From contig NZ_JAALFE010000004.1 in NCBI RefSeq assembly GCF_011059185.1, positions 62,001 through 126,000 of the forward strand: a DNA stretch of 64,000 bases. Direction: 5' to 3'. The notes beneath the pieces were generated by a model. The model saw only the letters and a list, made by a program, of their open reading frames with translations, made no database searches and was not told the origin of the DNA. Every line of letters starts with the position of its first letter. The stretch's first letter is position 1. The position numbers and the translations under genes were made by a program. The DNA comes from Paragemmobacter kunshanensis. Its GTDB lineage: Bacteria > Pseudomonadota > Alphaproteobacteria > Rhodobacterales > Rhodobacteraceae. Positions 12,428-38,815 of this stretch are shown here, one piece after another.

Positions 12428-12724
12428 TCAGCCCTTCCGCAAATGGTCTTCCTCGCGCTCGATCGACCAGTCGATCAGCTTGCGCCACAGCTTTTCCAGC
12501 TTGTCTGGCGGCAAGCCCTGCGCCTCTGCATGACGCCGCACATTGGCCACGACCTGCTCCACCCGATCGTCGATCCGCGCGGGCAGGCCCACCTGTTCCT
12601 TGATCGCGGCGGCACGGTCGATATAGGCGGTCCGCTCTGCGAACATCGCCACCAGCGCCTCGTCCAGCCGATCAATCTCGGCCCGGATATCGGCCATCGT
12701 CATGCAGTCTTCCGGCCTCTTCAT
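12428..12724 (-). CDS. Chorismate mutase, AroQ type
   Basis: A 98-residue all-helical chorismate mutase: DIRAEIDRLDEALVAMFAERTAYI for the first helix, then RIDDRVEQVV and a last helix ending near WSIEREED. Enzymes of this type turn chorismate into prephenate for phenylalanine and tyrosine. It stands alone, not fused to prephenate dehydratase. It sits inside the folate one-carbon operon, 35 bp before folD2 and 69 bp after fhs. Met8 (12703) is an alternative start. Confidence 0.9.
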   Translation of the reverse strand: MKRPEDCMTMADIRAEIDRLDEALVAMFAERTAYIDRAAAIKEQVGLPARIDDRVEQVVANVRRHAEAQGLPPDKLEKLWRKLIDWSIEREEDHLRKG

Positions 12725-12743
12725 GCCTCGCCCCCTTTCAGGA

Positions 12744-12765
12744 TGGCCCCCATGTAAGGGGGCCA
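12744..12765 (-). other. Intercistronic stem-loop between fhs and chorismate mutase
   Basis: A perfect inverted repeat TGGCCCCC / GGGGGCCA with a 6-nt loop, in the 69-bp gap between the chorismate mutase start and the fhs stop. No T-run follows on the minus strand, so it is more likely an mRNA-stabilising or processing hairpin than a full terminator. Being upstream of the mutase start it may lower downstream expression. Confidence 0.5.
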
Positions 12766-12793
12766 GCCCGAAAGGGCAACGCGACAGATCGCT

Positions 12794-14470: not shown

Positions 14471-14580
14471 GTCCCAGCTCCCGTTGCGGGGTTCTTCCCC
14501 GTTCATGACCTGATACCGACATGCAAGCCCGTTGAGAGTGGCTTTTCCGACCTTTTCGGCCCCAGATTCGCCAGCCTGCG

Positions 14581-25214: not shown

Positions 25215-25976
25215 TCAGGCCGCCTCTGTCCCGCCCTTCACCCCAGTGATGTAGGACACGATGTCATTCCCGTCCGTCTCGTCCTTGCGCAGGCTGGCCA
25301 CGATCCGCCCGCGCCGGAACACCACGATCCGGTCCACCAGATCGAAGACCTGCCGCAGGTTGTGGCTGATCAGGATCAGCGGCACCCCCCGGTCCTTCAA
25401 GCCCCGGATGATGTTCTCCACCTGCGCCGTCTCCTGCACGCCCAGCGCCGCCGTCGGCTCATCCATGATCACCAGCTTGCTGGCAAATGCCGCCGTCCGC
25501 GCGATGGCCACGCATTGCCGCTGCCCGCCCGACATGTTGCGGATCGGGTTGTCCACGTTCGGGATCTTCACCGCCGTCGTCTTCAGCGCCTCCAGCGTCC
25601 GCTCGCGCATCGCCTTGCGGTCGAGGATGGAGAACGGCCCCAGCCGGAACCTGAACAATTCCCGCCCAAGGAACAGGTTCGACGGCACGTCCAGATCATC
25701 GGCCAGCGCCAGCGTCTGGAACACCGTCTCGATCCCGGCCTCGCGCGCCTCCAGCGGCCCTGCAAAACTCACCGGCTGGCCGTCGAAGAAAATCTCCCCC
25801 GCCGTCCGCTGCTCCACCGCCGTGACCTGCCGGACGAAGGTGGATTTCCCCGCCCCGTTGTCGCCCACGACCGCCACATGCTCACCCTCGTGCAGCACGA
25901 AATCCGCGTCCTCCAGCGCATGCACGCCGCCATAGCGCTTCGTCAGGCCCCGGGTTTCCAGAATGATCCTTGCCAT
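25215..25976 (-). CDS. Sugar-type ABC transporter ATP-binding protein
   Basis: A 253-residue single ATPase domain of the carbohydrate (RbsA/FrcA-like) group. Walker A GDNGAGKST (38-46), Q-loop near VFQTLAL, signature MSGGQRQ (148-154), Walker B LVIMDEP (168-174) and switch His in ISHNL. Unlike RbsA it is a single rather than tandem ATPase, as in the rhizobial FrcA type. It is the last gene of the importer operon, 5 bp after the permease. Confidence 0.93.
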   Translation of the reverse strand: MARIILETRGLTKRYGGVHALEDADFVLHEGEHVAVVGDNGAGKSTFVRQVTAVEQRTAGEIFFDGQPVSFAGPLEAREAGIETVFQTLALADDLDVPSNLFLGRELFRFRLGPFSILDRKAMRERTLEALKTTAVKIPNVDNPIRNMSGGQRQCVAIARTAAFASKLVIMDEPTAALGVQETAQVENIIRGLKDRGVPLILISHNLRQVFDLVDRIVVFRRGRIVASLRKDETDGNDIVSYITGVKGGTEAA

Positions 25977-25981
25977 GTCCC

Positions 25982-27094
25982 TCACCCCCGCGTCCGCGTG
26001 CGTTGCCGCCACTGGTCCAGAACGACCGCCCCGACGATGATCGCGCCCTTCACCATCTCCTGGTAATAGGCGTCCAGCCGGATCGAGGTGAAACCCGAGA
26101 TGATCACCGAAAAGATCGCAGCCCCCAGCACGGTGCCGATGATCGACCCGCGCCCCCCGGCCAGCGACACACCCCCGATCACCGCCATGGCAATCGCGTC
26201 CAGTTCGTACATCACCCCCATGCCCGCCTGCGCCGTCAGGTTCTTCGACGTCAGCAGGATCGCGGCCACGGCGGCCAGCAGACCGGCCATCGTATAGACC
26301 AGCACCTTGTGCCGATCGACATTGATCCCCGACATCCGCGCCGCCGCCTCGTTCGACCCGATGGCATAGCTGCGCTTGCCGTACAGCGTGTATTTCATCA
26401 CCAGATGGAACAGCACCGCCAGCAGCACGAAGACCACCGCCGGGTTCTGCCCCTGCCAGGACAGCAGGCCGAAGGTCATCCCCCCCAGCAGATCGCCATT
26501 CGCAAGGCTCCCGTACCCCTCGGTCGGAAAGCTGACAGGCTGCCCGTTCGACCACCACCGCGCCACGCCGCGCGCCGATACCATCATCCCCAAGGTCGCG
26601 ATGAAGGGCGGGATCTTCGTATAGGCCACCAGAAGCCCGTTCACCAACCCTGCCAGCAACCCGCAGGCCAGCCCCGCGGCAATCGGCACGATCACCGGCA
26701 GGTCCATCGCCCAGTCCCCGAAGATCGCCTTCGGGTTCGGGTTCCCGTTCACCATCGCCGTCTGCGCGAAACTCATCACGATCATCGCCGTCGCCCCCAC
26801 GACAGAGCCCGACGACAAGTCGATCCCCCCGATGATGATGACCTGCGTCACCCCCAGCGCGATGATCCCGATGATCGCCACCTGCAGGATCATGATGTCC
26901 AGCCGCTGCTGGTTGAAGATCGCGTCCACATTGTCGCGCATGTTGAACAGGAAGGATCCCCCCTGCATGCGGTTCAGAACCTCGAAGATCACAAGGATCA
27001 GGACAAGCGCCCCGAACACGTTCCATTCCGGAGCGCGCGTCCTCTTCGCCGGATCGTATTTCAGGCCACCCAGCCCATGCGTCGCCTCTGCCAT
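25982..27094 (-). CDS. Sugar-type ABC transporter permease
   Basis: A 370-residue inner-membrane permease of the RbsC/FrcC group, with about ten hydrophobic helices. Family features: IMILQVAIIGIIALGVTQVIIIGGIDLSSGSVVGATAM and LDAIAMAVIGGVSLAGGRGSIIGT. The start MAEATHGLGG at 27094 is preferred to 27127 by family length and the AGGAGGA sequence upstream. It follows the binding-protein gene after a stem-loop. Confidence 0.92.
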   Translation of the reverse strand: MAEATHGLGGLKYDPAKRTRAPEWNVFGALVLILVIFEVLNRMQGGSFLFNMRDNVDAIFNQQRLDIMILQVAIIGIIALGVTQVIIIGGIDLSSGSVVGATAMIVMSFAQTAMVNGNPNPKAIFGDWAMDLPVIVPIAAGLACGLLAGLVNGLLVAYTKIPPFIATLGMMVSARGVARWWSNGQPVSFPTEGYGSLANGDLLGGMTFGLLSWQGQNPAVVFVLLAVLFHLVMKYTLYGKRSYAIGSNEAAARMSGINVDRHKVLVYTMAGLLAAVAAILLTSKNLTAQAGMGVMYELDAIAMAVIGGVSLAGGRGSIIGTVLGAAIFSVIISGFTSIRLDAYYQEMVKGAIIVGAVVLDQWRQRTRTRG

Positions 27095-27155
27095 GGCGTC
27101 CTCCTCCCGCTTGCCGTTTTCATCCATCCTGCCACAACAGGCGCAGGAATGAAGC

Positions 27156-27180
27156 GGGGCGGCGCTTGCTCCGCCGCCCC
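27156..27180 (-). other. Stem-loop between binding protein and permease genes
   Basis: Perfect 8-bp stem (27156-27163 with 27173-27180) in the 106-bp gap. Such hairpins after binding-protein genes usually stabilise that part of the mRNA so that the binding protein is made in excess. No U-run follows on the minus strand. Confidence 0.6.
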
Positions 27181-27200
27181 CTTGTCATCCCGCGGGGGGA

Positions 27201-28142
27201 TCAGTTCTTGGACAGGTAGCCGTCGATATTCGCAGGCGTCACCAGTTCGAAGGGGACATAGACCTTCTGCTCCACCGCCTCGCCCGCGGCCAGCTTCACC
27301 GCCGCATCCAGCGCGCCGCCACCCTGCGCCGCCGCGTTCTGGAACACCGTGATGTCCAGCTCGCCCGCCTGCATGGAGGCCAGCGCGTCCTGCGTCGCAT
27401 CCACGCCCGACACGATGACCGAAGCCATGTCGATGCCCGCCGCCTTCATCGCCTGGATCGCGCCCAGCGCCATTTCGTCATTGTTGGCCAGCACGCCGTC
27501 GAAGGCCGCGCCCGTGGACAGCCAGTTCGTCATCAGGTTCTGCGCCTGATCCCGCGACCAGTTGGCGGTCTGCTGGTCGATGACATTGACCTTCACCGCG
27601 CATTCGCCCGCTTCCATCACGTCGTAATAATTCTGCGTGCGCTGCACGGCGGCCTGATTGGAAAGCTCGCCCTGCATGACATAGACGCTCACCTCGTCCT
27701 TGCCTGCGGCCTTCCACTGGTTGCACTGCTCGATGAAGCCCTGACGCGAGGATTCGCTTTCGTTCGACGCGACAAAGGCCTGATTGTCGGGCAGGCTGTC
27801 CACGTTGATCGGCTGGCGGTTCACATAGACCAGCGGCACGCCCGCGGCGGCAGCGGCATCCGTCATCGCCTGCGTGGCGGACGTATCGACCGGGTTCACG
27901 ATGATCGCATCCACACCCGACGCGATGAAGTTGTTGATCTGGTCCAGCTGCTTGGCCACGTCGTTCTGCGCGTCCTCGATCTGCACCGACAGGCCCGCCG
28001 CATCGGCCTGCGCCTGAATCCCGTTGCGCAGCACGGTCAGGAAGTTGTCATCGAACAGCGCCATCGACACGCCGATCCCGTCGGCCATCGCGGTGGTCCC
28101 CATCAGCGAGACGAAGCCCGCAGCGATCAGGGTCTTTTTCAT
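27201..28142 (-). CDS. Sugar-type periplasmic binding protein
   Basis: A 313-residue periplasmic-binding protein of the ribose/galactose cluster (Peripla_BP_4). Signal peptide to residue 20 (TTAMA). Typical stretches: ALFDDNFLTVLRNGIQAQA, QLDQINNFIASGVDAIIVNPVDT, VYVNRQP, NDEMALGAIQAMKAAG. The family also takes up inositol, rhizopine and fructose. The neighbouring IolI-like and MocD/MocE-like genes favour an inositol- or methoxy-inositol-like ligand, but this is inference. Confidence 0.93.
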   Translation of the reverse strand: MKKTLIAAGFVSLMGTTAMADGIGVSMALFDDNFLTVLRNGIQAQADAAGLSVQIEDAQNDVAKQLDQINNFIASGVDAIIVNPVDTSATQAMTDAAAAAGVPLVYVNRQPINVDSLPDNQAFVASNESESSRQGFIEQCNQWKAAGKDEVSVYVMQGELSNQAAVQRTQNYYDVMEAGECAVKVNVIDQQTANWSRDQAQNLMTNWLSTGAAFDGVLANNDEMALGAIQAMKAAGIDMASVIVSGVDATQDALASMQAGELDITVFQNAAAQGGGALDAAVKLAAGEAVEQKVYVPFELVTPANIDGYLSKN

Positions 28143-28192
28143 TGGTTCTCTCCTCCACTGTCGGTGTCCGGCACACCGTTCTCCCTGCCGGA

Positions 28193-28210
28193 CCGCCCGC
28201 TTCCGGGCGG
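28193..28210 (-). other. Stem-loop upstream of the binding-protein gene
   Basis: Perfect 7-bp stem CCGCCCG/CGGGCGG with a 4-nt loop, in the 80-bp gap between the TIM-barrel gene and the binding-protein gene. Probably an mRNA processing or stability element. Confidence 0.4.
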
Positions 28211-28222
28211 CATTCCCTCCGC

Positions 28223-29041
28223 TCAGGCCTCCACGCCCGCGCGGATGAATTCCATCGAAGCCGCCAGCGCGGGTTTCGGATCGGTCAAGTCATGGACCGA
28301 CGGCGCAAAGGGCTCGTAACTGATCGGCCCCGCATAGCCCGCGCGCCGCAGCGCCCGGATCTGGGCCACATTGCCCAGCACGTCATCACCATCGACCAGC
28401 ACCCGATGCGGATCGCGCATGTCGTCCAGCGGGATCATGTCCTTGACGCCCGACACATGGACGATCCCCGTCAACTCCGGGAAGATCGGCCCGAACCCCG
28501 CCAGCGCATGGTGGAAGGTGTCATGCACCATGAAACAGGTGCCGACCCCGCCCACCGCATCAATTGCCTCGGCCAGCACGTCCTTGTAGCGCAGCGAACA
28601 GACTGCAAAGCCCAGCGGCTCCACCGTCGCCTTCAACCCATGCGCGCGCAGCATCGGCAGGATTTCCCGCAGCGCCGCCTCCGTCACCTTGCGGCTCTCG
28701 CCCCGCTCCGTCGCCACGCCGTCATTGCGCGGGATCAGGCTCACCGCCTCGGCCCCTGCCGCCACCGCGATCCGCATCAGCGCCTCAGCCTCCGCCGCCT
28801 TGGCATCGGACCAGTCGTTGAACATCTTGACCTCGGCCAGCGCAAGGAAGCGCAGACCGCGCGCCCGGACCGCCGCCCCCACCGCCGCCGGATCGGCCCC
28901 GCCGAACAGCGGCCCCGCCAGATCGTTGCGATACTCCACCCCCACGCAGCCCAGGCCCGCCGCGAGATCGGCAAAGGCCTCCCATCCCAGTCGCGGGGCG
29001 GTCATGTGGTTCAGGGCAAAGGGCAGCATCTCTACGGTCAT
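28223..29041 (-). CDS. Sugar-phosphate isomerase/epimerase-like TIM barrel (IolI/MocC type)
   Basis: A 272-residue AP-endonuclease-2-type TIM barrel, the fold of IolE, IolI, hydroxypyruvate isomerase and rhizobial MocC. Metal-ligand type positions are seen: ATVEPLGF (Glu), MVHDTFHHALAG (Asp, His), VHVSGVKD (His), VDGDDVLGN and ISYEPFAP (Glu). Such enzymes isomerise or dehydrate keto-inositols and related sugars. It is the first gene of the importer operon; a regulator operator lies 136 bp upstream. The exact reaction is not known. Confidence 0.85.
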   Translation of the reverse strand: MTVEMLPFALNHMTAPRLGWEAFADLAAGLGCVGVEYRNDLAGPLFGGADPAAVGAAVRARGLRFLALAEVKMFNDWSDAKAAEAEALMRIAVAAGAEAVSLIPRNDGVATERGESRKVTEAALREILPMLRAHGLKATVEPLGFAVCSLRYKDVLAEAIDAVGGVGTCFMVHDTFHHALAGFGPIFPELTGIVHVSGVKDMIPLDDMRDPHRVLVDGDDVLGNVAQIRALRRAGYAGPISYEPFAPSVHDLTDPKPALAASMEFIRAGVEA

Positions 29042-29176
29042 CCTCGATCACGGCGTCGCAGGCCCGTTGCCCGCATCATGCCATAGTTTCGCAGTAATGG
29101 AATATTCATTCCAAAGAAGCGGTTTCTTTTGTGCATCGGACCCAGGGCGCAGATTCATCGCGCAGATCGTCAGAAT

Positions 29177-29192
29177 TGACGATTTTTCGTCA
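29177..29192. promoter_or_regulatory. Probable LacI-family operator 1
   Basis: TGACGATTTTTCGTCA, a palindrome with 6-bp arms and an even centre as LacI-type regulators prefer. It lies 136 bp upstream of the first gene of the importer operon. A near-identical copy (one mismatch) lies in front of the regulator gene at 30431. Confidence 0.65.
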
Positions 29193-29243
29193 TTTCTGGC
29201 CTCCTGTCCGGAAGGCAGGGCCGAAGGAGAAAACGCCTCCGCG

Positions 29244-29297
29244 TGCATACACCCTGCTGCACCGCGCGCGGCACTGCGCCGCTGAACAGGTGATTTC
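29244..29297. repeat. Dispersed 55-bp intergenic element, copy 2
   Basis: Begins TGCATACACC and ends GCTGAACAGGTGATTTC; matches 7255-7310 in order and spacing. In this copy the inner palindrome is changed to CGGCACTGCGCCG. It lies about 200 bp upstream of the TIM-barrel gene, in the operon control region. Confidence 0.5.
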
Positions 29298-29389
29298 AAT
29301 GGAAAAGCCCGTTTCCCGGCCCGGGTTCGCCCGAGGGGACCGTCCTCACCCCCAGGCTCGGAGTGGTTCTCGCCGACAGCGCCCTGCCG

Positions 29390-30421
29390 TCAGATCGATT
29401 CCGCCACATGCAACTGGACCGGCAGAAACACCTGCCCCGCCCCGCCATTCCCGCGCTCACGCACGGCCCGCACCATCAGCCCCAGCACCGTCTGGCACAG
29501 ATCCGGCAGCGGCGTCGCATCGACCATCGTCACCCAGCCCTGGGCCAGACCCGCCCGCGAGTCGGCGGTCACTTCATTCACCACCACCGCCACCTCGCCC
29601 GGCCTGCGCGCCTGCTGAAGCGCGGCAATGGCCCCCTCCATCCCGCCCCCGGCAACGAAGATCCCGCGCAGGTCGGGATGGCGGGTCAGCAGGTTCAGCG
29701 TCGTCTCATAGGTCAGCTGCCGGGTCTCGAGGTTCACGATGCTCTCCAGCACTTCAAGATCCGGCCTTTCCTCGCGCAGAAAGGCCCGAAACCCCGTCTC
29801 GCGCAGGTCATGCCCATGCCAGCGCGCCCCGCCGACGAAGATCGCCACCTTCCCGCCGCCCCGAACGGAAAGCGAGATCATCCAGGCCGCCGTCCGCCCC
29901 ACCTTCAGGTTGTTCAACCCCACATAACCCGCCCGCACGCCTTGCGCGAAATCAGACAGCAGCGAAAAGACCGGCACGCCCTGCGCCTTCAACGCCTCCA
30001 CCGCCGCCGTGATCTCGGGATGGTTCACCGCCGTCGCCGCGATCACATCGCAGCGCCCCGCCATGCCCCGCAGGAGCCCCGCCACCTCGCTCGGCGCCTG
30101 ACTGGCCGAGAATTCCATGACCAGCTGCCCCTTCACCCCCGGCAGCAGCGCGACGGCCGACCGGAACTCGCGCGCCATGTTCTGATAGAACTCCTGCCCC
30201 TGCTTGTGCAGCAGCACGCCAAAGCGCACCGAAGGCACCGCCCTGCCCGCGCCCTCCGTCAGCCGCGCCGCCGCCGGATGCCCGATCCGCAGCGCCGCCT
30301 CCAGCACCGCCGCGCGGGTCGCAGCCGCCACCGCCTCGCGCCCGTTCAGCAGCCGATCCACCGTCGCCACCGAAACCCCCGCCGCCGCCGCCAGCGCCGC
30401 CATGCCCGGCCGTCTTGCCAT
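29390..30421 (-). CDS. LacI-family transcription regulator
   Basis: A 343-residue regulator. The N-terminal helix-turn-helix reads GMAALAAAAGVSVATVDRLLNG, followed by the hinge helix region and a periplasmic-binding-protein-like effector domain (FGVLLHKQGQEFYQNMAREF, ISLSVRGGGKVAIFVGG, LRGIFVAGGGMEGAIAAL). The domain resembles those that bind sugars. Start MARRPGM at 30421 has AGGTG 5 nt upstream; a palindromic operator lies only 10 bp before it, so it is probably autoregulated. It stands between the importer operon and the oxygenase operon and is likely to control both. Confidence 0.9.
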   Translation of the reverse strand: MARRPGMAALAAAAGVSVATVDRLLNGREAVAAATRAAVLEAALRIGHPAAARLTEGAGRAVPSVRFGVLLHKQGQEFYQNMAREFRSAVALLPGVKGQLVMEFSASQAPSEVAGLLRGMAGRCDVIAATAVNHPEITAAVEALKAQGVPVFSLLSDFAQGVRAGYVGLNNLKVGRTAAWMISLSVRGGGKVAIFVGGARWHGHDLRETGFRAFLREERPDLEVLESIVNLETRQLTYETTLNLLTRHPDLRGIFVAGGGMEGAIAALQQARRPGEVAVVVNEVTADSRAGLAQGWVTMVDATPLPDLCQTVLGLMVRAVRERGNGGAGQVFLPVQLHVAESI

Positions 30422-30430
30422 CGCATCACC

Positions 30431-30446
30431 TGATGATTTTTCGTCA
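30431..30446. promoter_or_regulatory. Probable LacI-family operator 2
   Basis: TGATGATTTTTCGTCA, differing from operator 1 by one base. It sits 10 bp upstream of the regulator start codon and 126 bp upstream of the divergent MocD-like gene, inside the shared promoter region. A further half-site, TGACGAAAAGCGGCGA, is at 30463-30478. Confidence 0.65.
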
Positions 30447-30571
30447 TTCTTCTGCATCACTATGACGAAAAGCGGCGAAAGATCCAGCATTTGCCCTACC
30501 GAAAAGCGGAACGATTGTTCTAAGCTGCCCCAAAAGACCGGCGCGCGCCCCGCGCCGAGAGGGAGGATCGC

Positions 30572-31666
30572 ATGGCGAAAAGAGACTACAGCCTGCTCGG
30601 CTCCGATGGCGCCCGCGCCGTCGAAACCGGGCTTGCCGCGGCGGAGTGGTATCACACAGATGTCCCCCGCAAGGTGATGAAAGAGTTGATGCAGCGGTCG
30701 GATCAACCGGCGATCCGCGACACCATCATCCTCTACGGCTGCATGATCGCCTTCGCCGCCGGGGGCATCGCGCTCTGGGGTTCATGGTGGTGCGTGCCAT
30801 TCTGGGCCGCCTATGGCGTCCTCTACGGCTCCGCCTCGGATTCGCGCTGGCATGAATGCGGCCACGGCACGGCCTTCAAGACGCCGTGGATGAACAACGC
30901 CGTCTACGAAATCGCCTCCTTCATGATCATGCGCAACTCCGCCACCTGGCGGTGGAGCCATGCCCGCCACCACACCGACACCTACATCGTCGGCCGCGAC
31001 CCGGAAATCGCCATCATGCGCCCCCCGGCCTTCGTCAAGCTGATCGGCGCCTTCTTCGGCATCCCCGATGTCATCGCCTTCTTCCCCCGGATGATCCAGA
31101 ACGCCCTCTCCGGCCCCACGGCCGAAGAGCGCACCTTCGTCCCCCAATCCGAATGGGCCAAGGTGCAGCGCGTGGCGATCCTCTACACCGCGATCTACGC
31201 CGCCACCCTCGCCACCGCGGTCTGGATGGGGTCCATCCTGCCCCTCATGGTGATCGGCCTGCCCCGCATGTATGGCGCATGGCACCACATCATGACGGGC
31301 CTCCTGCAGCATGGCGGCCTTGCCGACAACGTCATCGACCACCGGCTGAACTCGCGCACCGTCTACATGAACCCGATCAGCCGCTTCATCTACTGGAACA
31401 TGAACTACCATGTGGAACACCACATGTTCCCGATGGTCCCCTATCACGCCCTGCCGCGTCTGCACGAAACCATCAAGCACGACCTCCCCGCCCCCAACCG
31501 CTCCATAGCCGAGGCCTTTGCCGAGATGTGGCCCGCCCTGCGCCGCCAGCTCGCCTACGAGGATTATTTCCTGCGGCGCGACCTGCCCCCCACCGCGAAA
31601 CCCTATCGCGAAGATTTCCACCGTGCGGCCCTGGGCGACCTGCCCGACGCGCTGCCCGCCGAATGA
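30572..31666 (+). CDS. MocD-like membrane diiron oxygenase (fatty-acid desaturase fold)
   Basis: A 364-residue integral membrane protein with the eight-histidine diiron signature: HECGH (94-98), HARHH (130-134) and HVEHH (280-284), plus His247 and His257. Membrane helices lie around 50-90 and 198-232. The order and the paired Rieske protein resemble MocD of rhizopine catabolism, where MocD/MocE act in O-demethylation of 3-O-methyl-scyllo-inosamine; lipid desaturases and AlkB share the fold. GGGAGGAT gives a strong ribosome binding site. No dedicated reductase gene is nearby. Likely reaction: hydroxylation or oxidative demethylation of the imported compound (inference). Confidence 0.85.
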   Translation: MAKRDYSLLGSDGARAVETGLAAAEWYHTDVPRKVMKELMQRSDQPAIRDTIILYGCMIAFAAGGIALWGSWWCVPFWAAYGVLYGSASDSRWHECGHGTAFKTPWMNNAVYEIASFMIMRNSATWRWSHARHHTDTYIVGRDPEIAIMRPPAFVKLIGAFFGIPDVIAFFPRMIQNALSGPTAEERTFVPQSEWAKVQRVAILYTAIYAATLATAVWMGSILPLMVIGLPRMYGAWHHIMTGLLQHGGLADNVIDHRLNSRTVYMNPISRFIYWNMNYHVEHHMFPMVPYHALPRLHETIKHDLPAPNRSIAEAFAEMWPALRRQLAYEDYFLRRDLPPTAKPYREDFHRAALGDLPDALPAE

Positions 31667-31676
31667 GGATTGCCCG

Positions 31677-31991
31677 ATGCCCCAATGGATCCGCGCCTGC
31701 GCCACCGACGACATCGACGAAGAGGACCTGATCCGCTTCGATCACGCCGGCGCCACCTACGCCATCTACCACTCCCCCGAAGGCGACTTCTTCGCCACCG
31801 CGGGCCTCTGCACCCATGAAAACGTGCATCTCTGCGACGGGCTCGTCATGGGCCACCTGATCGAATGCCCGAAACACAACGGCCAGTTCGACTACCGCAC
31901 CGGCGAAGCCAGGCGCACCCCCGTCTGCGTCAACCTTCGCACCTTCCCGGTCAAGGTCGAAGGCGGCGACGTCTATATCGAGGTGCCGTGA
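31677..31991 (+). CDS. MocE-like Rieske [2Fe-2S] ferredoxin
   Basis: A 104-residue soluble Rieske protein. Cluster ligands are Cys45-x-His47 (CTHE) and Cys64-x-x-His67 (CPKH), followed by GQFDYRTGEARRTPVC, as in MocE and in ferredoxins of aromatic dioxygenases. It most likely passes electrons to the diiron oxygenase encoded 10 bp upstream. Its stop overlaps the start of the PanB-like gene by one base (TGATG). Confidence 0.92.
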   Translation: MPQWIRACATDDIDEEDLIRFDHAGATYAIYHSPEGDFFATAGLCTHENVHLCDGLVMGHLIECPKHNGQFDYRTGEARRTPVCVNLRTFPVKVEGGDVYIEVP

Positions 31992-32725
31992 TGGCGAAAC
32001 GCCTGACCGTCCGCGACCTGCTGGATCAGCGCGGCAAGCACCAATTCGCCATGCTGCGGGTCGAAACGCTGGAAGAGGCCGAAGCCGCCGAGAAAGCGGG
32101 GGTCGAACTTCTCTCCATCCCGCCCGCCATGATCATGGACCGCCGCTTCCGCGACGCGGCCCCCACCGCCTTTGCCTTTCCGGGCGACAATTTCTACGAA
32201 ATCGGCGACACCGCCGATTTCCTGAAATGGGCCTTCCCCCTCTACAAGCACGGGGCAGACGGCTTTTACTGTTCCGGCTCGCTGACCACCATCCGCGCCA
32301 TGGCCGATCACGCCCTGCCCGTCTGCGGCCATGTCGGCCTGATCCCGTCCAAACGCACATGGACCGGCGGGTTCAAGGCAGTGGGCAAGACGCTGGAAAC
32401 CGCGCAACGCGTCTGGAACCAGGTCAAGGCGCTGGAGGAGGCAGGCGCATTCGCGGCGGAAATCGAGGTCGTCCCGCATGCCATCACCCAGGCCATCGCG
32501 GAGCGGACCAGCCTCTTCCTCATCTCGATGGGCGCAGGCGCGGGCGGGCATGCCCAATACCTCTTCACCGATGACGTGCTGGGCCAGAACCCGGGCCACA
32601 TCCCCCGCCATGCCAAGGTCTATGCCGATTTCGCGGGCGAATATGCACGGCTTCAGGAAAAGCGCGTCACCGCCATGCGCGCCTTCGCCGATGACGTGCA
32701 TGACGGCACCTATCCCGCGCCCTAG
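31991..32725 (+). CDS. Divergent PanB-like (ketopantoate hydroxymethyltransferase family) protein, ends at in-frame TAG
   Basis: A 244-residue TIM-barrel protein related to PanB: VCGHVGLIPS with His114, GGFKAVGKT, IEVVP with Glu159 and GHIPRHAKVY align with PanB. But the positions of the PanB metal ligands (Asp45, Asp84) and of Lys112/Glu114 read differently (LSIPPAM, FPGD, YCSGS), so it is probably not a pantothenate enzyme. Reading stops at TAG 32723-32725, right after YPAP; the same frame goes on for 21 more codons to a TGA at 32789-32791, giving the length normal for PanB. It is coupled to the Rieske gene, so it likely acts on a product of the oxygenase. Confidence 0.8.
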   Translation: MAKRLTVRDLLDQRGKHQFAMLRVETLEEAEAAEKAGVELLSIPPAMIMDRRFRDAAPTAFAFPGDNFYEIGDTADFLKWAFPLYKHGADGFYCSGSLTTIRAMADHALPVCGHVGLIPSKRTWTGGFKAVGKTLETAQRVWNQVKALEEAGAFAAEIEVVPHAITQAIAERTSLFLISMGAGAGGHAQYLFTDDVLGQNPGHIPRHAKVYADFAGEYARLQEKRVTAMRAFADDVHDGTYPAP

Positions 32726-32791
32726 CATCTGGTGGACAGCGATGCCGATGTCGTCGCCGCCTTCCGCGACTGGCTGGACCGCGTCGCCTGA
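32726..32791 (+). other. In-frame continuation of the PanB-like gene after TAG
   Basis: Twenty-one codons (HLVDSDADVVAAFRDWLDRVA) and a TGA, in the same frame as the upstream gene. The peptide is a good amphipathic helix with normal codon use for this genome. It looks like the original C-terminus, cut off by a stop codon that could be a point mutation (for example GAG to TAG), a sequencing error, or a site of readthrough. Confidence 0.6.
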
Positions 32792-32814: not shown

Positions 32815-32949
32815 TCAGCAGCAGGGAAGCTTCACCTGCACCATGATCGCGGCCTGTTCCGGCGTCAGCGGCGGAAACAGCCGCGCCCAAAGACCGGGCC
32901 CCCGCGCAGCAACCACGGCAGGGGCCTGCACCTGTGCCTCATCCGCCAT
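32815..32949 (-). CDS. Small ORF coupled to the xdhC/coxF-like gene
   Basis: A 44-codon ORF, MADEAQVQAPAVVAARGPGL... ending VKLPCC. Its ATG overlaps the end of the upstream XdhC-like gene by 11 bp, so it would be translated by coupling. The product is short, with an Ala/Val/Pro-rich start, a TPEQAAIM helix and two terminal cysteines. No family is recognised. It would be the last gene of the CO dehydrogenase operon. Expression is unproven. Confidence 0.4.
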   Translation of the reverse strand: MADEAQVQAPAVVAARGPGLWARLFPPLTPEQAAIMVQVKLPCC

Positions 32950-33793
32950 GCGCTTCCCCCCTTCCCCCGTCCCGCCGCAACATCACGATCTCGGCCAGGA
33001 TCGACAGCGCAATCTCCTCCGGCGTGATCGCGTGAATGTTCACCCCCGCCGGGGCCTTCACCCGTGCCAGCGCCTCTGCCTCCATCCCCCCGGCGATCAG
33101 CCGCTCCGCCAGCGTCGCGAACTTGCGCCGCGATCCGACAAAGGCCACGTGCTCCGCCCCCGCCGCCAGCGCCGCCCGCAACCCCGCCTCATCACCCTTG
33201 CCCTGCGTCGCCACCACGATAAAGCGCCGCGCGCCCGGTGCGGCCTCGCCCCCGCCCTCTGCCCCGGTCGGCAGCACAAAACCGTCCTGCACGCGCTCTG
33301 CAGGCCCCTCCGTCAGGCCCGGCGCCGCCATCGTCCGGTGCAGGTCGAACCGCCCCGCCAGATCGCACAGCGCCATCGCCACAGGCCCCGCACCAAAGAC
33401 CACCAGCCGCGGCCTCGGCAGCACCGGCTCCACGAAGATATCCATCGACCCTTTCGACGGGCAGCCATTCCGGGCAAAGCGCACCCCCGCCCGCTCCTCT
33501 CCAGGCGCCACCCCCTCGGCCGCCAGCAATTCCTCCGGCCGTAACGAGATGAACTGCGGCTGCCCTGCCTTGATCGCCGCAGCACCCGCCTTGCCCACCG
33601 CCGACCGCGCGCATCCCCCACCGATCCAGCCCTCGGCAATCGTCCCATCCGCAAGGACGATCGCCTTCGCCCCCGGCTTCGCGCTTGTCGCATCCACCGT
33701 CCGCACGACGGTGGCGATGGCAAAGGGCTCTCCCGTAGCCCGCAGGCTGGACAGGCGGCTTTCGAAACGGTCCTCGAAACGCGCGGTGATCAT
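32939..33793 (-). CDS. coxF: XdhC-family protein (CoxF-like)
   Basis: A 284-residue XdhC/CoxI-family protein. The N-terminal part has FAIATVVRTVDATSAKPGAKAIVLADGTIAEGWIGGGC, and the C-terminal Rossmann part has RLVVFGAGPVAMALCDLAGRF and VAFVGSRRKFATLAERL. XdhC proteins bind molybdenum cofactor and help its sulfuration and insertion; CoxF is the matching protein of CO dehydrogenase clusters. Start MITARFEDRF overlaps the coxE stop by 4 bp. In this place it should mature the CuMo active site together with CoxD and CoxE. Confidence 0.85.
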   Translation of the reverse strand: MITARFEDRFESRLSSLRATGEPFAIATVVRTVDATSAKPGAKAIVLADGTIAEGWIGGGCARSAVGKAGAAAIKAGQPQFISLRPEELLAAEGVAPGEERAGVRFARNGCPSKGSMDIFVEPVLPRPRLVVFGAGPVAMALCDLAGRFDLHRTMAAPGLTEGPAERVQDGFVLPTGAEGGGEAAPGARRFIVVATQGKGDEAGLRAALAAGAEHVAFVGSRRKFATLAERLIAGGMEAEALARVKAPAGVNIHAITPEEIALSILAEIVMLRRDGGRGEAHGG

Positions 33794-34965
33794 AGCCGTT
33801 CCAACTCCTTCTCCAGCCCCGCCAGATCGTCCAGCGTGCCTGCCGGGGCAAACAGGTCCAGATAGGGCAGCGCCGCCGCCATGCCTGCGGCCACGGGCGC
33901 GTAATCGCGCCAGCCCTTCAACGGGTTCAGCCAGACGATCCGGCACCCCCGCCGCGCCAGCCGCGCCATCGCCCCGGCCAGCGCATCGGACGACCCGCTG
34001 TCATAGCCATCCGACAGGATCATCACCACCGTCCGCCCATCCACGAAGCGCCGCGCATGGGTGGCGGCAAATTGCGCCAGGGCCTCCCCGATCCGGCTGC
34101 CGCCGCCGAACCCGTCGGCCAGCAGCGTGATCCGGTTCAGCATGCGCAAGGGGTCCTCCTCGCGCAGCGCCTCGGTCACCCGCACCAGACGGGTATGGAA
34201 CAGATAGGCATCCGCCGCCCCATCCCTTCGCATCAGCCCCGCCATGAAGGCAAGGAACGCCCGCGCATAGGGCAACATCGACCCCGACACATCCACCAGA
34301 AGCGCGATCTTCACCGGCCGCTCCGGCCGCCTGCGCCGCATCAGGCGCAAGGGCTCCCCCCCGGTGCCGACCGAGGCGCGGATCGTCCGCCGCAGGTCCA
34401 GCGCCGCGCCCCGCCGCGCCGCCTTGCGCCGCCGTGACCGGCGGTCGCGCAGCGCCTGCCCCAGGGCCCGCGCCACCGCCTCCGCCTGCCGGATATCCTC
34501 GGGCGGCACCACCTCGCGCAGGTCCTTGCGCCGCAGGTTCCGCACCGCCGTCGCGATCAGCCGCCCTTCGCCATCGCCCTCCCCGTCGCCACCGCCCACG
34601 GCCTCCGTCCCCGGCTCAGGTGCCGCGCCGCTGCCAGAGGCACCCTCCCCCAGCATGGCCGACCGCGCCGCAGGGGGTGTGCCCGCAGGCACCGCCCGGC
34701 TCCGCACCCGGCCCCCATTTCGCCAATAGGCATCGAACACCGCATCGAACCGCGCCCAGTCCTCGGCACAGCCACAGGCCACCGCCTTCAGCGCCCGCCG
34801 CACCGCGGCCTCCCCCACCCCGGCCGCGGCCAAGGCCGCCAAGGCCAACTCCGTCTCGCCGATCCCCAGCCGAAACCCGTTTTCCCGCAGATGCGCCATG
34901 AACCCCACGACCCGCGCCGCAGGCCCCGCATCCCGCGCGGCAAAGCGGGTGACGCGCCCCCTCAT
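33790..34965 (-). CDS. coxE: VWA-domain protein CoxE
   Basis: A 391-residue CoxE. The C-terminal von Willebrand A domain has the metal site DVSGSM after RPVKIALLV, then FHTRLVRVTEAL, FGGGSRIGEAL and ILSDGYDSG. The N-terminal part (HLRENGFRLGIGETELALAAL) is typical of CoxE. CoxE works with the AAA+ protein CoxD in assembling the copper-sulfur-molybdenum centre of CO dehydrogenase. Start and stop overlap the neighbouring genes by 4 bp each. Confidence 0.93.
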   Translation of the reverse strand: MRGRVTRFAARDAGPAARVVGFMAHLRENGFRLGIGETELALAALAAAGVGEAAVRRALKAVACGCAEDWARFDAVFDAYWRNGGRVRSRAVPAGTPPAARSAMLGEGASGSGAAPEPGTEAVGGGDGEGDGEGRLIATAVRNLRRKDLREVVPPEDIRQAEAVARALGQALRDRRSRRRKAARRGAALDLRRTIRASVGTGGEPLRLMRRRRPERPVKIALLVDVSGSMLPYARAFLAFMAGLMRRDGAADAYLFHTRLVRVTEALREEDPLRMLNRITLLADGFGGGSRIGEALAQFAATHARRFVDGRTVVMILSDGYDSGSSDALAGAMARLARRGCRIVWLNPLKGWRDYAPVAAGMAAALPYLDLFAPAGTLDDLAGLEKELERL

Positions 34966-35840
34966 GCCGCCCGCCCCGCCAGACGCTGCGCCACTTCCGT
35001 GCTGATTGCCGCCCTGTCGGCCTGCGTCTTGAGCAAGGTCGCCAGCGCCGCCTGCAGCACCCCGGCATCCTCCGTCAGGTCTGCCACGCCCAGCCCCGCC
35101 AAGGCGGCGGCAAAATCCAGCATCTCCGCCACGCCGGGTTTCTTTTCCAGCGCCTCCTTCCGCAGGTCCTGCACGAAACCCACGATCTGCGCCCCCAAAT
35201 CCGCCGCCACCTGCGAACAGCGCGCCTGAAGGATCGCCAGTTCCGTCGCCCGGTCGGGATAATCCACATGCGCATAAAGGCAGCGCCGCCGCAGCGCGTC
35301 CGACAGGTCGCGCGTGCCATTCGCCGTCAGGATCACCATGGGCCGCGTCACGGCGCGCAGCGTTCCCATCTCGGGAATGGTGATCTGGAAATCGGCCAGC
35401 ACCTCCAGAAGATAGGCCTCGAATTCCTCATCCGCCCGGTCGATCTCGTCGATCAGCAGGACCGGCGCCACCGGCTGCCGGATGGCCCGCAAGAGGGGTC
35501 GCTCCAGCAGATAGGCCTCTGAGAACAGCCGCGCCTCCACCGCGCTGCCCGTCTCGCCCGCTTCGGCCAGCGCGCGGATCGCCAGCAACTGGCGCTGATA
35601 GTTCCACTCATAAATCGCCTGCGCCGCGTCCAGCCCCTCATAGCATTGCAGCCGGATCAATTCGCAGCGCTTCCACGCCGCCAGGGCGCGGGCGACTTCC
35701 GTCTTGCCCACCCCCGCCGCCCCTTCCAGAAGCAAGGGCCGCCCCAGCGCCAGCGACAGATGCAGCGCCATCGCAAGGTCGGCAGAGGCAACATAGCCCT
35801 GCCCTGCAAGCCCGTCCTGCACCGTGCTGGCGGATGCCAT
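34962..35840 (-). CDS. coxD: AAA+ ATPase CoxD (MoxR type)
   Basis: A 292-residue MoxR-type AAA+ ATPase. Walker A EGAAGVGKT (about 39-47), Walker B VLLIDEIDRADEEFEAYLL, sensor 1 ILTANGTRDL and an arginine-rich LSDALRRRC. CoxD is reported to remodel apo-CO dehydrogenase so that sulfur and copper can be placed. It follows coxL after a 66-bp gap with a strong hairpin and overlaps coxE by 4 bp. Confidence 0.93.
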   Translation of the reverse strand: MASASTVQDGLAGQGYVASADLAMALHLSLALGRPLLLEGAAGVGKTEVARALAAWKRCELIRLQCYEGLDAAQAIYEWNYQRQLLAIRALAEAGETGSAVEARLFSEAYLLERPLLRAIRQPVAPVLLIDEIDRADEEFEAYLLEVLADFQITIPEMGTLRAVTRPMVILTANGTRDLSDALRRRCLYAHVDYPDRATELAILQARCSQVAADLGAQIVGFVQDLRKEALEKKPGVAEMLDFAAALAGLGVADLTEDAGVLQAALATLLKTQADRAAISTEVAQRLAGRAA

Positions 35841-35876
35841 CGCGAAACTCCTGCAGTTTCAAAGGAAAAGGGGGGT

Positions 35877-35900
35877 CCGGGGGGGCCGTTGCCCCCCCGG
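35877..35900 (-). other. Hairpin between coxL and coxD
   Basis: Perfect 10-bp stem (35877-35886 with 35891-35900) and a 4-nt loop, 7 bp after the coxL stop on the minus strand. It may partly stop transcription so that the structural genes coxMSL are made in excess of coxDEF. On the minus strand the following bases GACCCCCC have no U-run. Confidence 0.55.
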
Positions 35901-35906
35901 CCTCGC

Positions 35907-38327
35907 TCAGCCATGCAGGCCCAGATCCCGCGCGATCTTCCAGATGCGCCAATGGTCATGCGGCATGTGGCTCTGCCGCAGGCCGAAGGCCCGGAAGGCA
36001 TCATGCACCGCGTTGGAAAAGGCCGGAACCGACCCGACGTTGGGGCTCTCCCCCACCCCCTTCGCCCCGATGGGATGGTGCGGGCTGGGCGTCTCGGTAT
36101 GATCGGTCGTGTAATGCGGCGTCTCCCATGCGGTGGGCAGGAAGAAATCCATCAACGTCCCGGTCTTGACGTTGCCGATCTCGTCATAGGCGATCTCCTG
36201 CCCCATCGCGATGGCATAGCCCTCGGTCGCCCCGCCATGCACCTGCCCCTCGATCACCATCGGATTGATCCGCGTGCCGCAATCGTCCAGCGCGTAGAAC
36301 TGCCGCACCTCATGCTCGCCCGTATCGACGTCGATCTCCATCACCGCGATATAGGCCCCGAAAGGATAGGTCATGTTGGGCGGATCGTAATAGCTCACCG
36401 CCTCCAGTCCCGGCTCGATCCCCGGAATGGCCTGATTGTAGGCCGCATAGGCGATCTCCTTCATGGTCTTGAACCGCTCCGGCGCGCCCTTCACCTGGAA
36501 CCGGTCCACATCCCATTCCAGATCCCCCTCATGCACCTCCAGAAGCCAGGCCGCGATCATCTGCGCCTTGGCGCGGATCTTCCGCCCACACAGCGCCGTC
36601 GCCGCCCCTGCAACGGGCGTCGACCGGCTGCCATAGGTGCCAAGGCCATAGGGCGCGGTATCCGTGTCGCCCTCCTCCACCGTGATGCTGTCCGCGCTCA
36701 GCCCGATCTCGCTTGCGATGATCTGGGCGAAGGTCGTCGCATGGCCCTGCCCCTGCGAAATGGTGCCCAACCGCGCGATGGCCGATCCGGTGGGGTGGAT
36801 ACGGATTTCGCACGAGTCGAACATCCCCATCCCAAGGATGTCGCAATTCTTCACCGGCCCCGCCCCCACGATCTCGGTGAAATGCGTCAGCCCGATGCCC
36901 AGCAGCTTGCGCGTCCTGCCCGCCTTGAAATCGGCGATCCGCTGCGCCTGCTCCTCCCGCAGCCCCTTGTAATCCACCGCCGCCAGAGCCTTGTCCCATG
37001 CGGTGTGATAGTCCCCTGAGTCATATTCCCAACCCAGTGCCGACTGATAGGGGAACTGCTCCTTGCGGATGAAATTGATGCGCCGCAACTCCGCCGCATC
37101 CATCCCCAACTCGATCGCCAGCACCTCGATCATCCGTTCGATGAAATAGGCGGCCTCCGTCACGCGGAAGGAACAGCGATAGGCCACCCCGCCGGGGGCC
37201 TTGTTGGTATAGACCCCGTCCACACCCACATAGGCCACCGGAATGTCATAGCTGCCGGTGCAGATGTGAAAGAACCCAGCCGGAAACTTCGTCGGGTCCG
37301 CGCAGGCGTCAAAGGCCCCGTGATCCGCCGTCACATGGCAACGCAGCGCGGTGATCTTGCCCTCTTTCGTGGCGCTGATCCGCCCCTTCATCCAATAGTC
37401 ACGCGCAAAGGCCGTGGCCATCAGGTTATCCATCCGGTCCTCGACCCATTTCACGGGTTTCCCCGTGACGATGGAGGCCACGATGGAACAGACATAGCCG
37501 GGATAGACCCCCACCTTGTTGCCGAACCCCCCGCCGATATCGGGCGATACCACGCGGATATTGTGCTCCTCGATCCCCGACAGAAGCGAGGCCACGGTGC
37601 GCACCACATGCGGCGCCTGGAACGTGCCCCAGACCGTCAGCTTGCCATTCACCTTGTCCATGGAGGCCACGCAGCCACAGGTCTCCAGCGGGCAGGGATG
37701 GGTGCGGTGATAGTAAACCATCTCCTCGGCCACCACTTCAGCCGCACCAAGCGCCTCTTCCGTCGCCGCCTTGTCGCCCGTCTCCCACAGGAAGATGTGG
37801 TTGTGATGCCGCCGCGGCCCATGCGCGCCCGACATGATCCCGTTCAGATCCTCGCGCAGAACCGGCGCATCGGGTTCCATCGCGGCGAAGGGGTCCACCA
37901 CGACGGGCAGTTCCTCATAGTCCACCTCGACCAGTTCGATGGCATCGGCGGCGATATAGCGGTCGGTCGCCACGACGAAGGCCACCTCCTGCCCCTGAAA
38001 CAGCACCTTGCCATCCGCCAACACCATCTGCTTGTCGCCCGCCAGCGTGGGCATCCAATGCAGGTTCAACGGTGCCAGATCGGCCGCCGTCAGCACCGCC
38101 ACCACGCCGGGCAGCGCCCGCGCCGCATCGGCATTGATGGATTTCACCCGCGCATGGGCATAGGGGCTTCGAACGAAATCCCCAAACAGCATGCCCTGCA
38201 GCTTGATGTCATCGACATAGTTCCCCTTGCCCTGGGTAAAGCGGACATCCTCCACCCGCTTCCGGCTGGTCCCCATGCCCTTCAGATTGGCGATGCGCTC
38301 CTCGCGTGTCGGCGTCAGGTCGTTCAT
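35907..38327 (-). CDS. coxL: Form I carbon monoxide dehydrogenase, large subunit
   Basis: An 806-residue molybdopterin subunit of the xanthine oxidase family. The loop AYRCSFR (382-388, Cys385) is the form I fingerprint and holds the Cys that binds copper in the CuMo centre; the form II loop would be AYRGAGR. GVGES supplies the active-site Glu760. Other features: [27 protein letters not shown]. The enzyme oxidises CO to CO2 with water and gives electrons to the respiratory chain. Start [11 protein letters not shown] overlaps the coxS stop by 4 bp; the open frame extends 116 codons upstream through coxS and is rejected. Confidence 0.97.
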
Positions 38328-38815
38328 TCCGCAGCCTCCTTCGCATTCATCTCTGCCGCCGCAGCCATGATCGCCTTGACGATGTTCTGATATCCCGTGC
38401 AGCGGCACAGGTTCCCCGCCATGCCAAAGCGCACCTCTTCTTCCGTGGGCTGCGGGTTCTCCTGCAGCAGACGATGCGCCCGCGTGATCATGCCGGGCGT
38501 GCAATAGCCGCATTGCAACCCGTGATGCTCGCGGAACATCCGCTGCAGCACATGCAGCCCGTCCGGCCCGCCCAGACCCTCGATGGTGGTGATCTCCGCC
38601 CCATCCGCCTGCGCCACGAACACGGTGCAGGCCTTCACCGACCGCCCGTTCATATCCACCGTGCAGGCCCCGCAATGGCTGGTCTCGCAGCCGATATGCG
38701 GCCCGGTGATCCCCAGTTTCTCGCGCAGCGTATGGATCAGCAATTCGCGCGGTTCGGCCAGCACCTCATGCACTTCGCCATTCACCGTCAGGCTGACCTG
38801 CATCTTCTTTCCCAT
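38324..38815 (-). CDS. coxS: Carbon monoxide dehydrogenase, small iron-sulfur subunit
   Basis: A 163-residue protein with two [2Fe-2S] clusters: plant-type ligands Cys43, Cys48, Cys51 and Cys63 ([10 protein letters not shown]), and C-terminal ligands Cys102, Cys105, Cys137 and Cys139 (CGYC, CRC). The start ATG at 38815 (MGKKMQVSL) has AGGGGGG about 6 nt upstream; an ATG two codons earlier (38821) lies inside that ribosome binding site. It passes electrons from CoxL to the flavin of CoxM. coxM ends 12 bp upstream; coxL overlaps by 4 bp. Confidence 0.96.

What the first reader, a model, noticed from the sequence alone, without database searches (positions are those of the whole stretch)
25215..32791. 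Uncharacterised oxidative catabolic locus: ABC importer, IolI-like barrel, LacI regulator, MocD/MocE-like pair and a divergent PanB-like enzyme
Seen: an importer operon and a divergent oxygenase operon flank one LacI-type regulator and share a 16-bp palindrome. Established: MocD and MocE of rhizobia act with MocB (binding protein) and MocC (IolE-like barrel) in rhizopine (methoxy-inosamine) catabolism. Inference: the cluster is a free-living relative of that system that imports a methoxy-inositol- or sugar-like compound, removes a methyl group with the diiron enzyme, and uses a PanB-like enzyme on the product. The combination with PanB and the absence of a reductase gene are not known to me.
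Basis: partly seen in the sequence, partly recalled or inferred. Interest (0 to 1): 0.78.

Follow-up and report, generated by a model that had tools for sequence, protein, structure and literature searches.

The report
Methyl-inositol demethylation operon with formaldehyde trap
A bacterial gene cluster that probably imports methylated plant sugar-alcohols, strips off the methyl group as toxic formaldehyde, and seems to use a re-purposed vitamin-synthesis enzyme to hand that formaldehyde to folate, a step for which no dedicated enzyme is known to us.

Summary
Importer, IolI-like barrel and LacI gene look like an inositol-type system: a relative adds a true IolG and an SDR, a Marivivens plasmid adds iolG-iolC-iolD, and this genome has IolG, SDR and IolD elsewhere. 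MocD/MocE most likely O-demethylate a methyl-inositol (pinitol or ononitol type). The third, PanB-like gene is the interesting part. It is a separate clade (PanBL) with the KPHMT fold; 0 of 127 members keep any of five metal/keto-acid residues, all keep His136 and Glu181. It follows MocD in 77 of 80 related loci, has no panC nearby in 126, stays when MocD is replaced by a sterol-desaturase-type oxygenase, and in some rhizobial lineages is followed by purU and folD. Twenty canonical panB loci from such genomes show none of these partners. Best reading: PanBL condenses the formaldehyde released by demethylation with tetrahydrofolate; FolD plus PurU (or Fhs here) make formate. That reaction is inferred, not shown. 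Against: most loci lack purU/folD; 22 of 40 MocE places lack a nearby PanBL; this copy lacks its last 22 residues through an early stop.

The parts
25215..25976 (-). ABC transporter ATPase, single domain of 253 aa (sugar CUT2 type, half the usual length)
   Evidence: PF00005 1.1e-26; best NCBIfam YtfR matched over 1-235 of 492 only
25982..27127 (-). ABC permease, sugar CUT2 type
   Evidence: PF02653 7.5e-45
27201..28142 (-). periplasmic binding protein, inositol/sugar type
   Evidence: PF13407 1.3e-47; nearest solved chain 4yo7, 182 bits against 133 for the next and top by fold; its myo-inositol ligand is recalled
28223..29041 (-). IolI-like TIM-barrel isomerase
   Evidence: PF01261 6.9e-21; nearest solved chains 2q02/4hgx 98.9 bits, IolI 1i60 25.7 bits
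29177..29192 (.). operator-like palindrome at the importer operon promoter
   Evidence: exact TGACGANNNNTCGTCA
29390..30421 (-). LacI-type regulator
   Evidence: PF00356 1.1e-7, PF13407 5.2e-38
30431..30446 (.). second copy of the palindrome, LacI/MocD promoter region
   Evidence: one mismatch; a TGACGA or TCGTCA half-site in the LacI-MocD gap of 33 of 37 relatives
30572..31666 (+). MocD-like membrane diiron oxygenase (proposed O-demethylase) with HECGH, HARHH and HVEHH
   Evidence: PF00487 1.3e-36; motifs read
31677..31991 (+). MocE Rieske [2Fe-2S] ferredoxin
   Evidence: TIGR02377 169.6 bits, cut-off 136.15
31991..32725 (+). PanBL: KPHMT-fold protein without the metal/keto-acid residues; proposed formaldehyde-tetrahydrofolate enzyme; ends 22 residues early here
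   Evidence: PF02548 1.4e-34; 91.8 bits against a panB cut-off of 207.55; residues; relatives
32726..32791 (+). in-frame remainder after the early stop, matching the C-terminal end of full-length relatives
   Evidence: a helix in the model of the relative L008
10602..14506 (-). folD, a second folD-type gene and fhs, possible continuation of the one-carbon route; over 10 kb away and not shown to belong to the cluster

Best explanation
A LacI-controlled catabolic locus for O-methylated inositols. The ABC importer brings in a methyl-inositol (D-pinitol, ononitol or similar). MocD, a membrane diiron oxygenase fed with electrons by the MocE ferredoxin and a reductase encoded elsewhere, hydroxylates the methyl group; the hemiacetal falls apart into inositol and formaldehyde. 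PanBL, a ketopantoate-hydroxymethyltransferase relative that has lost the metal and keto-acid site, joins formaldehyde to tetrahydrofolate to give methylene-THF (or takes the carbon from the hemiacetal directly). FolD and then PurU (rhizobia) or Fhs run in reverse (here) release formate. The inositol is oxidised by IolG, isomerised by the IolI-like barrel and burnt by the iol pathway. Shown: gene content, conservation, linkage, residue loss, predicted fold. Inferred: substrate, demethylation, the PanBL reaction, the flow to formate.
For: Linkage: MocD within 4 kb upstream of PanBL in 77 of 80 loci and MocE in 76 of 80 (two of the three without MocD are cut by contig ends). In 20 loci from a phylum-wide sample a MocD (15), sterol-desaturase-type oxygenase (4) or Rieske oxygenase (1) lies in the fetched region of all 20. 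Control: 20 canonical panB loci from genomes that carry PanBL have 0 of 20 with MocD, MocE, sterol-desaturase-type gene, purU, reductase or IolG, and 16 of 20 with panC; panC near PanBL in 0 of 126 loci. Oxygenase swap with PanBL kept: Sinorhizobium sp. RAC02 has sterol-desaturase-type oxygenase, SBP, permease, ATPase, MocE, TIM barrel, PanBL, IolG, reductase, PurU, FolD. One-carbon genes: purU directly downstream of PanBL on the same strand in 11 of 126 loci, anywhere in the fetched stretch in 15 of 126 (loci partly chosen by hand); folD as well in M. huakuii, Agrobacterium and RAC02, and in R. rosettiformans at the far end of the importer operon. Inositol genes: IolG over its cut-off in L010 (420.5, cut-off 355), IolG within 9 kb in 23 of 80, iolG-iolC-iolD beside the cluster in Marivivens; own genome has IolG, SDR and IolD on other contigs. 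Chemistry: Mg ligands kept in 21 of 21 canonical PanB; none of five metal/keto-acid residues in any of 127 PanBL; His136 and Glu181 kept in all 152; one clade, SH-aLRT 100. Literature passages: spontaneous formaldehyde-THF condensation is too slow for growth and its authors could not exclude an unknown enzyme (PMC7073904); Rhizobium mesoamericanum induces mocDEF homologues and an ABC operon in root exudate whose most concentrated component is pinitol (PMC5789663); FolD-PurU beside a demethylating oxidase has a precedent (PMC6214936).
Against: I found no activity, binding or growth data for any gene here. purU/folD are near PanBL in a minority of loci (purU 8 of 80; 1 of 20 and 1 of 17 in the samples), and this genome has no PurU over the cut-off. 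22 of 40 over-cut-off MocE places have no PanBL nearby (one of them cut by a contig end), including all six outside the class; 18 of those 22 were fetched, none has a PanBL, and no substitute one-carbon gene was recognised among ten flanking genes scanned, four of which matched no family, so PanBL is not required for every MocDE system. In the class sample 7 of 17 PanBL loci show no recognised oxygenase (two near contig ends, their neighbours not scanned). Deleting panB (with ltaE) did not change formaldehyde-dependent growth of E. coli, so canonical PanB shows no such side activity (PMC7073904). The window copy is truncated and may be impaired. The own genome also has a glutathione-type formaldehyde dehydrogenase. 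The binding protein is far from the rhizopine SBP model (40.3 bits, cut-off 420) and its ligand is untested.
Confidence: 0.52

Rival explanations
1. The locus demethylates a methyl-inositol, but PanBL acts on the carbon skeleton: an aldolase or hydroxymethyltransferase on the keto-inositol or keto-sugar.
For: KPHMT fold, and weaker fold matches to lyases of the PEP-mutase/isocitrate-lyase kind; Glu181 and His136 kept.
Against: PanBL stays while substrate genes change: inositol genes, other sugar-type clusters with DUF4432 and Gfo/Idh genes, GH4, gluconolactonase and ILVD/EDD genes. The residues that bind metal and keto acid in PanB (roles recalled) are gone in 127 of 127.
Confidence: 0.17
2. 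PanBL is not an enzyme of C1 transfer but a non-catalytic partner of the membrane oxygenase, for instance a formaldehyde-binding or scaffolding protein.
For: Loss of metal ligands; near-constant adjacency to MocD.
Against: His136, Glu181 and a family-specific TWTGG..A.GK stretch are strongly conserved, more than a scaffold seems to need; purU/folD follow in several lineages.
Confidence: 0.15
3. The locus is a rhizopine (3-O-methyl-scyllo-inosamine) system in the narrow sense.
For: MocD and MocE of the same families; in an S. meliloti plasmid PanBL lies in a cluster with MocR-, MocA-, IolE- and SBP-like genes.
Against: No separate MocR, MocA or IolE match in the window; a MocR match over 200 bits among 126 PanBL loci only in L003, from which the query came; relatives carry IolG and SDR.
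Confidence: 0.06
4. PanBL is a spare pantothenate enzyme and its place in the operon is incidental.
For: Annotated as 3-methyl-2-oxobutanoate hydroxymethyltransferase in public records.
Against: Own genome has a canonical panB beside a gene recognised by eye as panC; PanBL scores 91.8 bits against a cut-off of 207.55; panC near it in 0 of 126 loci; active-site loss.
Confidence: 0.03

Closest known systems
Rhizopine catabolism genes mocCABRDEF of Rhizobium/Sinorhizobium
   Same: MocD-type oxygenase and MocE ferredoxin, thought to act on an O-methyl inositol derivative; CUT2-type binding protein; link to the iol pathway
   Different: LacI in place of MocR; IolG/SDR in relatives; no reductase in the cluster; PanBL present. 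The passages read about mocDEF name no PanB-like gene (PMC10107442)
Ketopantoate hydroxymethyltransferase (PanB, KPHMT)
   Same: fold, His136 and Glu181
   Different: no Asp45, Ser46, Asp84, Lys112 or Glu114; own clade; no panC nearby in 126 loci; linked to oxidative demethylase-type genes
Formaldehyde-activating enzyme Fae (named in PMC7073904; details recalled)
   Same: catalyses condensation of formaldehyde with a reduced pterin carrier
   Different: unrelated fold (recalled), tetrahydromethanopterin instead of THF
MABO-FolD-PurU demethylation operon of Paenarthrobacter pAO1 (PMC6214936, passages)
   Same: methyl carbon goes to methylene-THF, then FolD and PurU to formate
   Different: the oxidase itself makes methylene-THF; no PanB-like protein in the passages; an N-methyl substrate
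S. meliloti SMb20711-20714 inositol importer (PMC3454389, passages)
   Same: putative inosose-isomerase gene next to a CUT2 importer whose binding protein binds myo-inositol
   Different: no oxygenase or PanBL mentioned in the passages read

Membership tests
MocE family ferredoxin (TIGR02377) | score over curated cut-off | tested here: met
   169.6 bits, cut-off 136.15
Ketopantoate hydroxymethyltransferase (PanB) | score over TIGR00222 cut-off | tested here: not met
   91.8 bits, cut-off 207.55
Ketopantoate hydroxymethyltransferase (PanB) | Mg ligands Asp45, Asp84, Glu114 (E. coli numbers and roles recalled) | tested here: not met
   kept in 21 of 21 canonical and 0 of 127 PanBL sequences
Ketopantoate hydroxymethyltransferase (PanB) | KPHMT fold | tested here: met
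   model of the relative L008, pLDDT 90.4; Foldseek ranks 1-28 all KPHMT, best E 4e-17
Ketopantoate hydroxymethyltransferase (PanB) | linkage to panC | tested here: not met
   panC in 16 of 20 panB loci, 0 of 126 PanBL loci
Rhizopine moc system | MocD and MocE homologues | tested here: met
   PF00487 and TIGR02377; 72 and 63-64 % to the S. meliloti cluster's proteins
Rhizopine moc system | MocR, MocA, MocC/IolE homologues in the cluster | tested here: not met
   no separate match in the 64 kb window at 1e-6
Rhizopine moc system | MocF-type reductase in the operon | tested here: not met
   none in cluster; 44 % identical homologue on contig C41
Rhizopine moc system | rhizopine binding protein model NF052284 | tested here: inconclusive
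   40.3 bits, cut-off 420; the S. meliloti moc-type SBP also scores only 45.4
Inositol import and catabolism | IolG in operon of a relative and in own genome | tested here: met
   L010 420.5 and own genome 419.9 bits, cut-off 355
Inositol import and catabolism | binding protein binds an inositol | not testable with these tools
   needs ligand binding assay
Formaldehyde-THF condensing enzyme | catalysis of HCHO + THF to methylene-THF | not testable with these tools
   needs enzyme assay

The most novel reading that the evidence does not exclude
PanBL is a dedicated, metal-independent formaldehyde:tetrahydrofolate condensing enzyme, the folate counterpart of Fae, born from PanB by loss of the keto-acid site, and it serves oxidative O-demethylases of several unrelated families (MocD, sterol-desaturase type, perhaps Rieske and 2-oxoglutarate oxygenases) across Alphaproteobacteria.
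Probability: 0.42. Interest if true: 0.88.

Novelty: new variant of a known kind. Interest (0 to 1): 0.72.

Why it matters
Formaldehyde is described as entering folate by a slow spontaneous reaction, with no enzyme named for it (PMC7073904, passages). An enzyme for it would close a gap in one-carbon metabolism, matter for engineered methanol or formaldehyde assimilation, and correct the annotation of many genes now called panB. Methyl-inositols are abundant in legume nodules (PMC8730688, passages) and in one legume's root exudate (PMC5789663), yet my paper searches showed no bacterial demethylation genes for them; this gives a concrete candidate set.

Tried and rejected
Considered and dropped: lipid desaturase role (MocD has the desaturase histidine boxes, but the neighbours are sugar/inositol genes). 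Strict rhizopine system (no MocR/MocA/MocC here). Pantothenate role (own panB elsewhere). A dedicated reductase cluster: the C41 homologue sits among unrelated genes, about 6 kb from the glutathione-type formaldehyde dehydrogenase, with no operon sense. A substitute C1 gene in MocDE loci without PanBL: none recognised. Linking the window's folD-folD-fhs group to the cluster: distance over 10 kb and no conservation shown. At two mismatches the palindrome is not significant. All ten paper searches listed no paper that, from title, abstract or the passages opened, describes a PanB-like/MocE/formaldehyde link; only open-licence PMC papers are held, so papers such as Bahar 1998 were not seen. The pdb_via aligner was not available. 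The title of 4yo7 was cut in the listing, so its ligand stays recalled.

Full report
What is there. Minus strand: ABC ATPase, permease, binding protein, IolI-like barrel, LacI. Plus strand: MocD-like, MocE, PanB-like, tightly spaced (the last two overlap by one base at 31991). The palindrome at 29177 and 30431 is significant at one mismatch (2 found, 0.07 expected, 0 of 100 shuffles), not at two. A TGACGA or TCGTCA half-site occurs in the LacI-MocD gap of 33 of 37 relatives and in the IolI-LacI gap of 18 of 34 (counted by eye). This fits one LacI-type regulator controlling both arms. The genome has 4.46 Mb, window G000:C52:62001-126000; the nearest named relatives of the PanB-like gene are Rhodobacteraceae such as Rhodobacter amnigenus (91 % identity).

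Relatives. Four arrangements appear: Rhodobacteraceae, often with IolG and, where looked at in L010, an SDR at the end of the importer operon; Mesorhizobium with a different importer and other sugar-type genes; rhizobial-type clusters with reductase and often purU; and, among plasmids, an S. meliloti cluster with MocR-, MocA-, IolE- and SBP-like genes, which I call moc-type on gene content only. In the 80 loci MocD is within 4 kb upstream in 77, MocE in 76, LacI near in 41, IolI-like in 36, importer SBP in 36, IolG in 23, purU in 8, reductase in 8, folD in 0. Of the three without MocD upstream, two are cut by contig ends and one has MocD turned round in the same locus.

Samples drawn evenly over taxa. 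In a class-wide sample 19 of 289 genomes, and in a phylum-wide sample 19 of 398, had a hit at 1e-40; all phylum hits were in the same class, and the samples overlap. Twenty phylum-sample regions hold MocD in 15, a sterol-desaturase-type oxygenase in 4 (about 8 kb away in two) and a Rieske oxygenase in 1; a MocE-type ferredoxin in 18; a reductase in 6; IolG in 3; purU in 1. Seventeen class-sample regions, after three canonical-like hits were set aside, hold MocD in 6, a Rieske oxygenase in 1, PhyH/TauD-type genes in 3, and no recognised oxygenase in 7 (two of them near contig ends; L128 of the seven has MocE, IolG, purU, iolC and iolD); purU in 1. Twenty canonical panB regions from genomes that carry PanBL hold panC in 16 and none of MocD, MocE, sterol-desaturase-type gene, reductase, purU or IolG. 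panC lies in none of 126 PanBL stretches.

The reverse question. The MocE model finds 40 over-cut-off places in 26 of 398 genomes; 17 lie within about 3 kb of a PanBL and one about 7 kb away, 22 do not (read by eye; one of the 22, G395:C16, ends at a contig edge on the side where PanBL would lie). Eighteen of the 22 were examined: 15 have a MocD or sterol-desaturase-type gene beside them (one only a MocD fragment), none a PanBL. Of ten flanking genes scanned none is a known C1 gene and four matched no family. So PanBL goes with demethylase-type partners more strictly than they go with it.

The PanB-like protein. The model of the full-length relative L008 is confident (pLDDT 90.4) and its 28 best Foldseek matches are all KPHMT chains. 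Profile alignment puts Tyr94 and Ser96 at the places of Lys112 and Glu114 of E. coli PanB and keeps His136 and Glu181 as His115 and Glu160 (residue roles recalled). Across 152 aligned sequences the Mg triad is kept in 21 of 21 canonical PanB, 1 of 4 others (that one a canonical PanB beside a PanBL) and 0 of 127 PanBL-type sequences, none of which keeps any of the five residues; His136 and Glu181 are kept in all. The first strands align loosely, so the exact partners of Asp45, Ser46 and Asp84 are unsure. In a 77-row tree the 52 PanBL rows are one side of a branch with SH-aLRT 100, quick search, no bootstrap, some long branches. The half of the site that deals with the folate-borne carbon may thus be kept while the keto-acid and metal half is gone; this is an inference.

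Why formaldehyde. Oxidative O-demethylation releases formaldehyde (established chemistry). PanBL goes with oxygenases of at least two membrane diiron families, over several kinds of importer and sugar genes, so the shared product, not the skeleton, is its likely substrate. purU lies directly downstream on the same strand in 11 of 126 loci, in any position in 15 of 126 (nine of the 126 were plasmid loci chosen by hand, five of them with purU); folD joins it in four plasmid loci, in one of them 9-10 kb away. He and others measured that spontaneous formaldehyde-THF condensation is too slow for growth, deleted panB and ltaE without effect, and could not rule out an unknown enzyme (PMC7073904, passages; they cite work on M. 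tuberculosis PanB using formaldehyde). So canonical PanB is not the missing catalyst in E. coli; PanBL would be a changed relative. FolD and PurU beside a demethylating oxidase are known in pAO1 nicotine breakdown (PMC6214936, passages).

Why methyl-inositol. Own genome: IolG 419.9 bits and an SDR side by side on C1, IolD 892.7 bits on C23. The Marivivens plasmid joins importer, barrel, iolG, iolC and iolD to LacI, MocD, MocE and PanBL. The binding protein's nearest solved relative by sequence and fold is 4yo7 (myo-inositol ligand recalled); ordinary sugar-binding proteins follow closely, and Caulobacter's myo-inositol binding protein 4irx ranks only 48th by fold, so this is a lead. S. meliloti has a similar barrel-importer set whose binding protein binds myo-inositol (PMC3454389, passages). 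Root exudate of Mimosa pudica, with pinitol as its most concentrated component, induces a mocDEF homologue and an ABC operon in Rhizobium mesoamericanum; the authors read this as rhizopine use (PMC5789663, passages); pinitol is a simpler reading, untested.

The host. No PurU passes the cut-off; Fhs and two FolD-type genes lie at 10602-14506 of the window, so methylene-THF could leave as formate with ATP gain. A glutathione-type formaldehyde dehydrogenase exists too. The window's PanBL stops 22 residues early where all 84 tabulated relatives read on; in the model of L008 that tail is mostly a helix. The copy may be impaired, recently decaying, or affected by a sequencing error; this does not touch the family-level argument.

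Verdict. The locus is real and is a variant of the moc-type demethylation systems, most likely for methyl-inositols. Its interest lies in PanBL, a widespread family annotated as panB for which a formaldehyde-to-folate role is the best-supported but unproven reading.

Noticed in passing
window 32723-32791: The PanB-like frame ends 22 residues early compared with all relatives tabulated; intact copies exist in relatives.
   Followed up: partly
window 10602-14506: folD, a second folD-type gene and fhs in a row on the minus strand, a complete THF one-carbon oxidation set.
   Followed up: partly
window 25215-25976: The CUT2 ATPase is a single 253-aa domain instead of the usual duplicated protein of about 500 aa; the relative L010 has a 266-aa ORF there.
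   Followed up: no
window 32939-38675: Downstream genes look like an XdhC/CoxE/CoxD/CoxL-type molybdenum hydroxylase cluster (recognised by eye from the translations).
   Followed up: no
L132, L135, L139 (genome G161): A 1.6 Mb genome carries four PanBL-type genes, in loci with MocD-like, sterol-desaturase-type, PhyH, GH4, gluconolactonase and ILVD/EDD genes, hinting at methylated sugar use.
   Followed up: partly
L143, L144, L145: A further PanB paralogue keeps Asp45 and Lys112 but has Gln in place of Glu114 and Ser in place of Asp84; function unknown.
   Followed up: no
L175 and L235 (genome G583): The system is split: MocD-PanBL without MocE on one contig, MocE with importer, IolG and iolC on another, with only a MocD fragment there.
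   Followed up: no
L100, L101: PanB-like genes 37-39 % identical to the window's lie beside sterol-desaturase-family genes, in L100 also Rieske, TIM barrel and reductase.
   Followed up: partly
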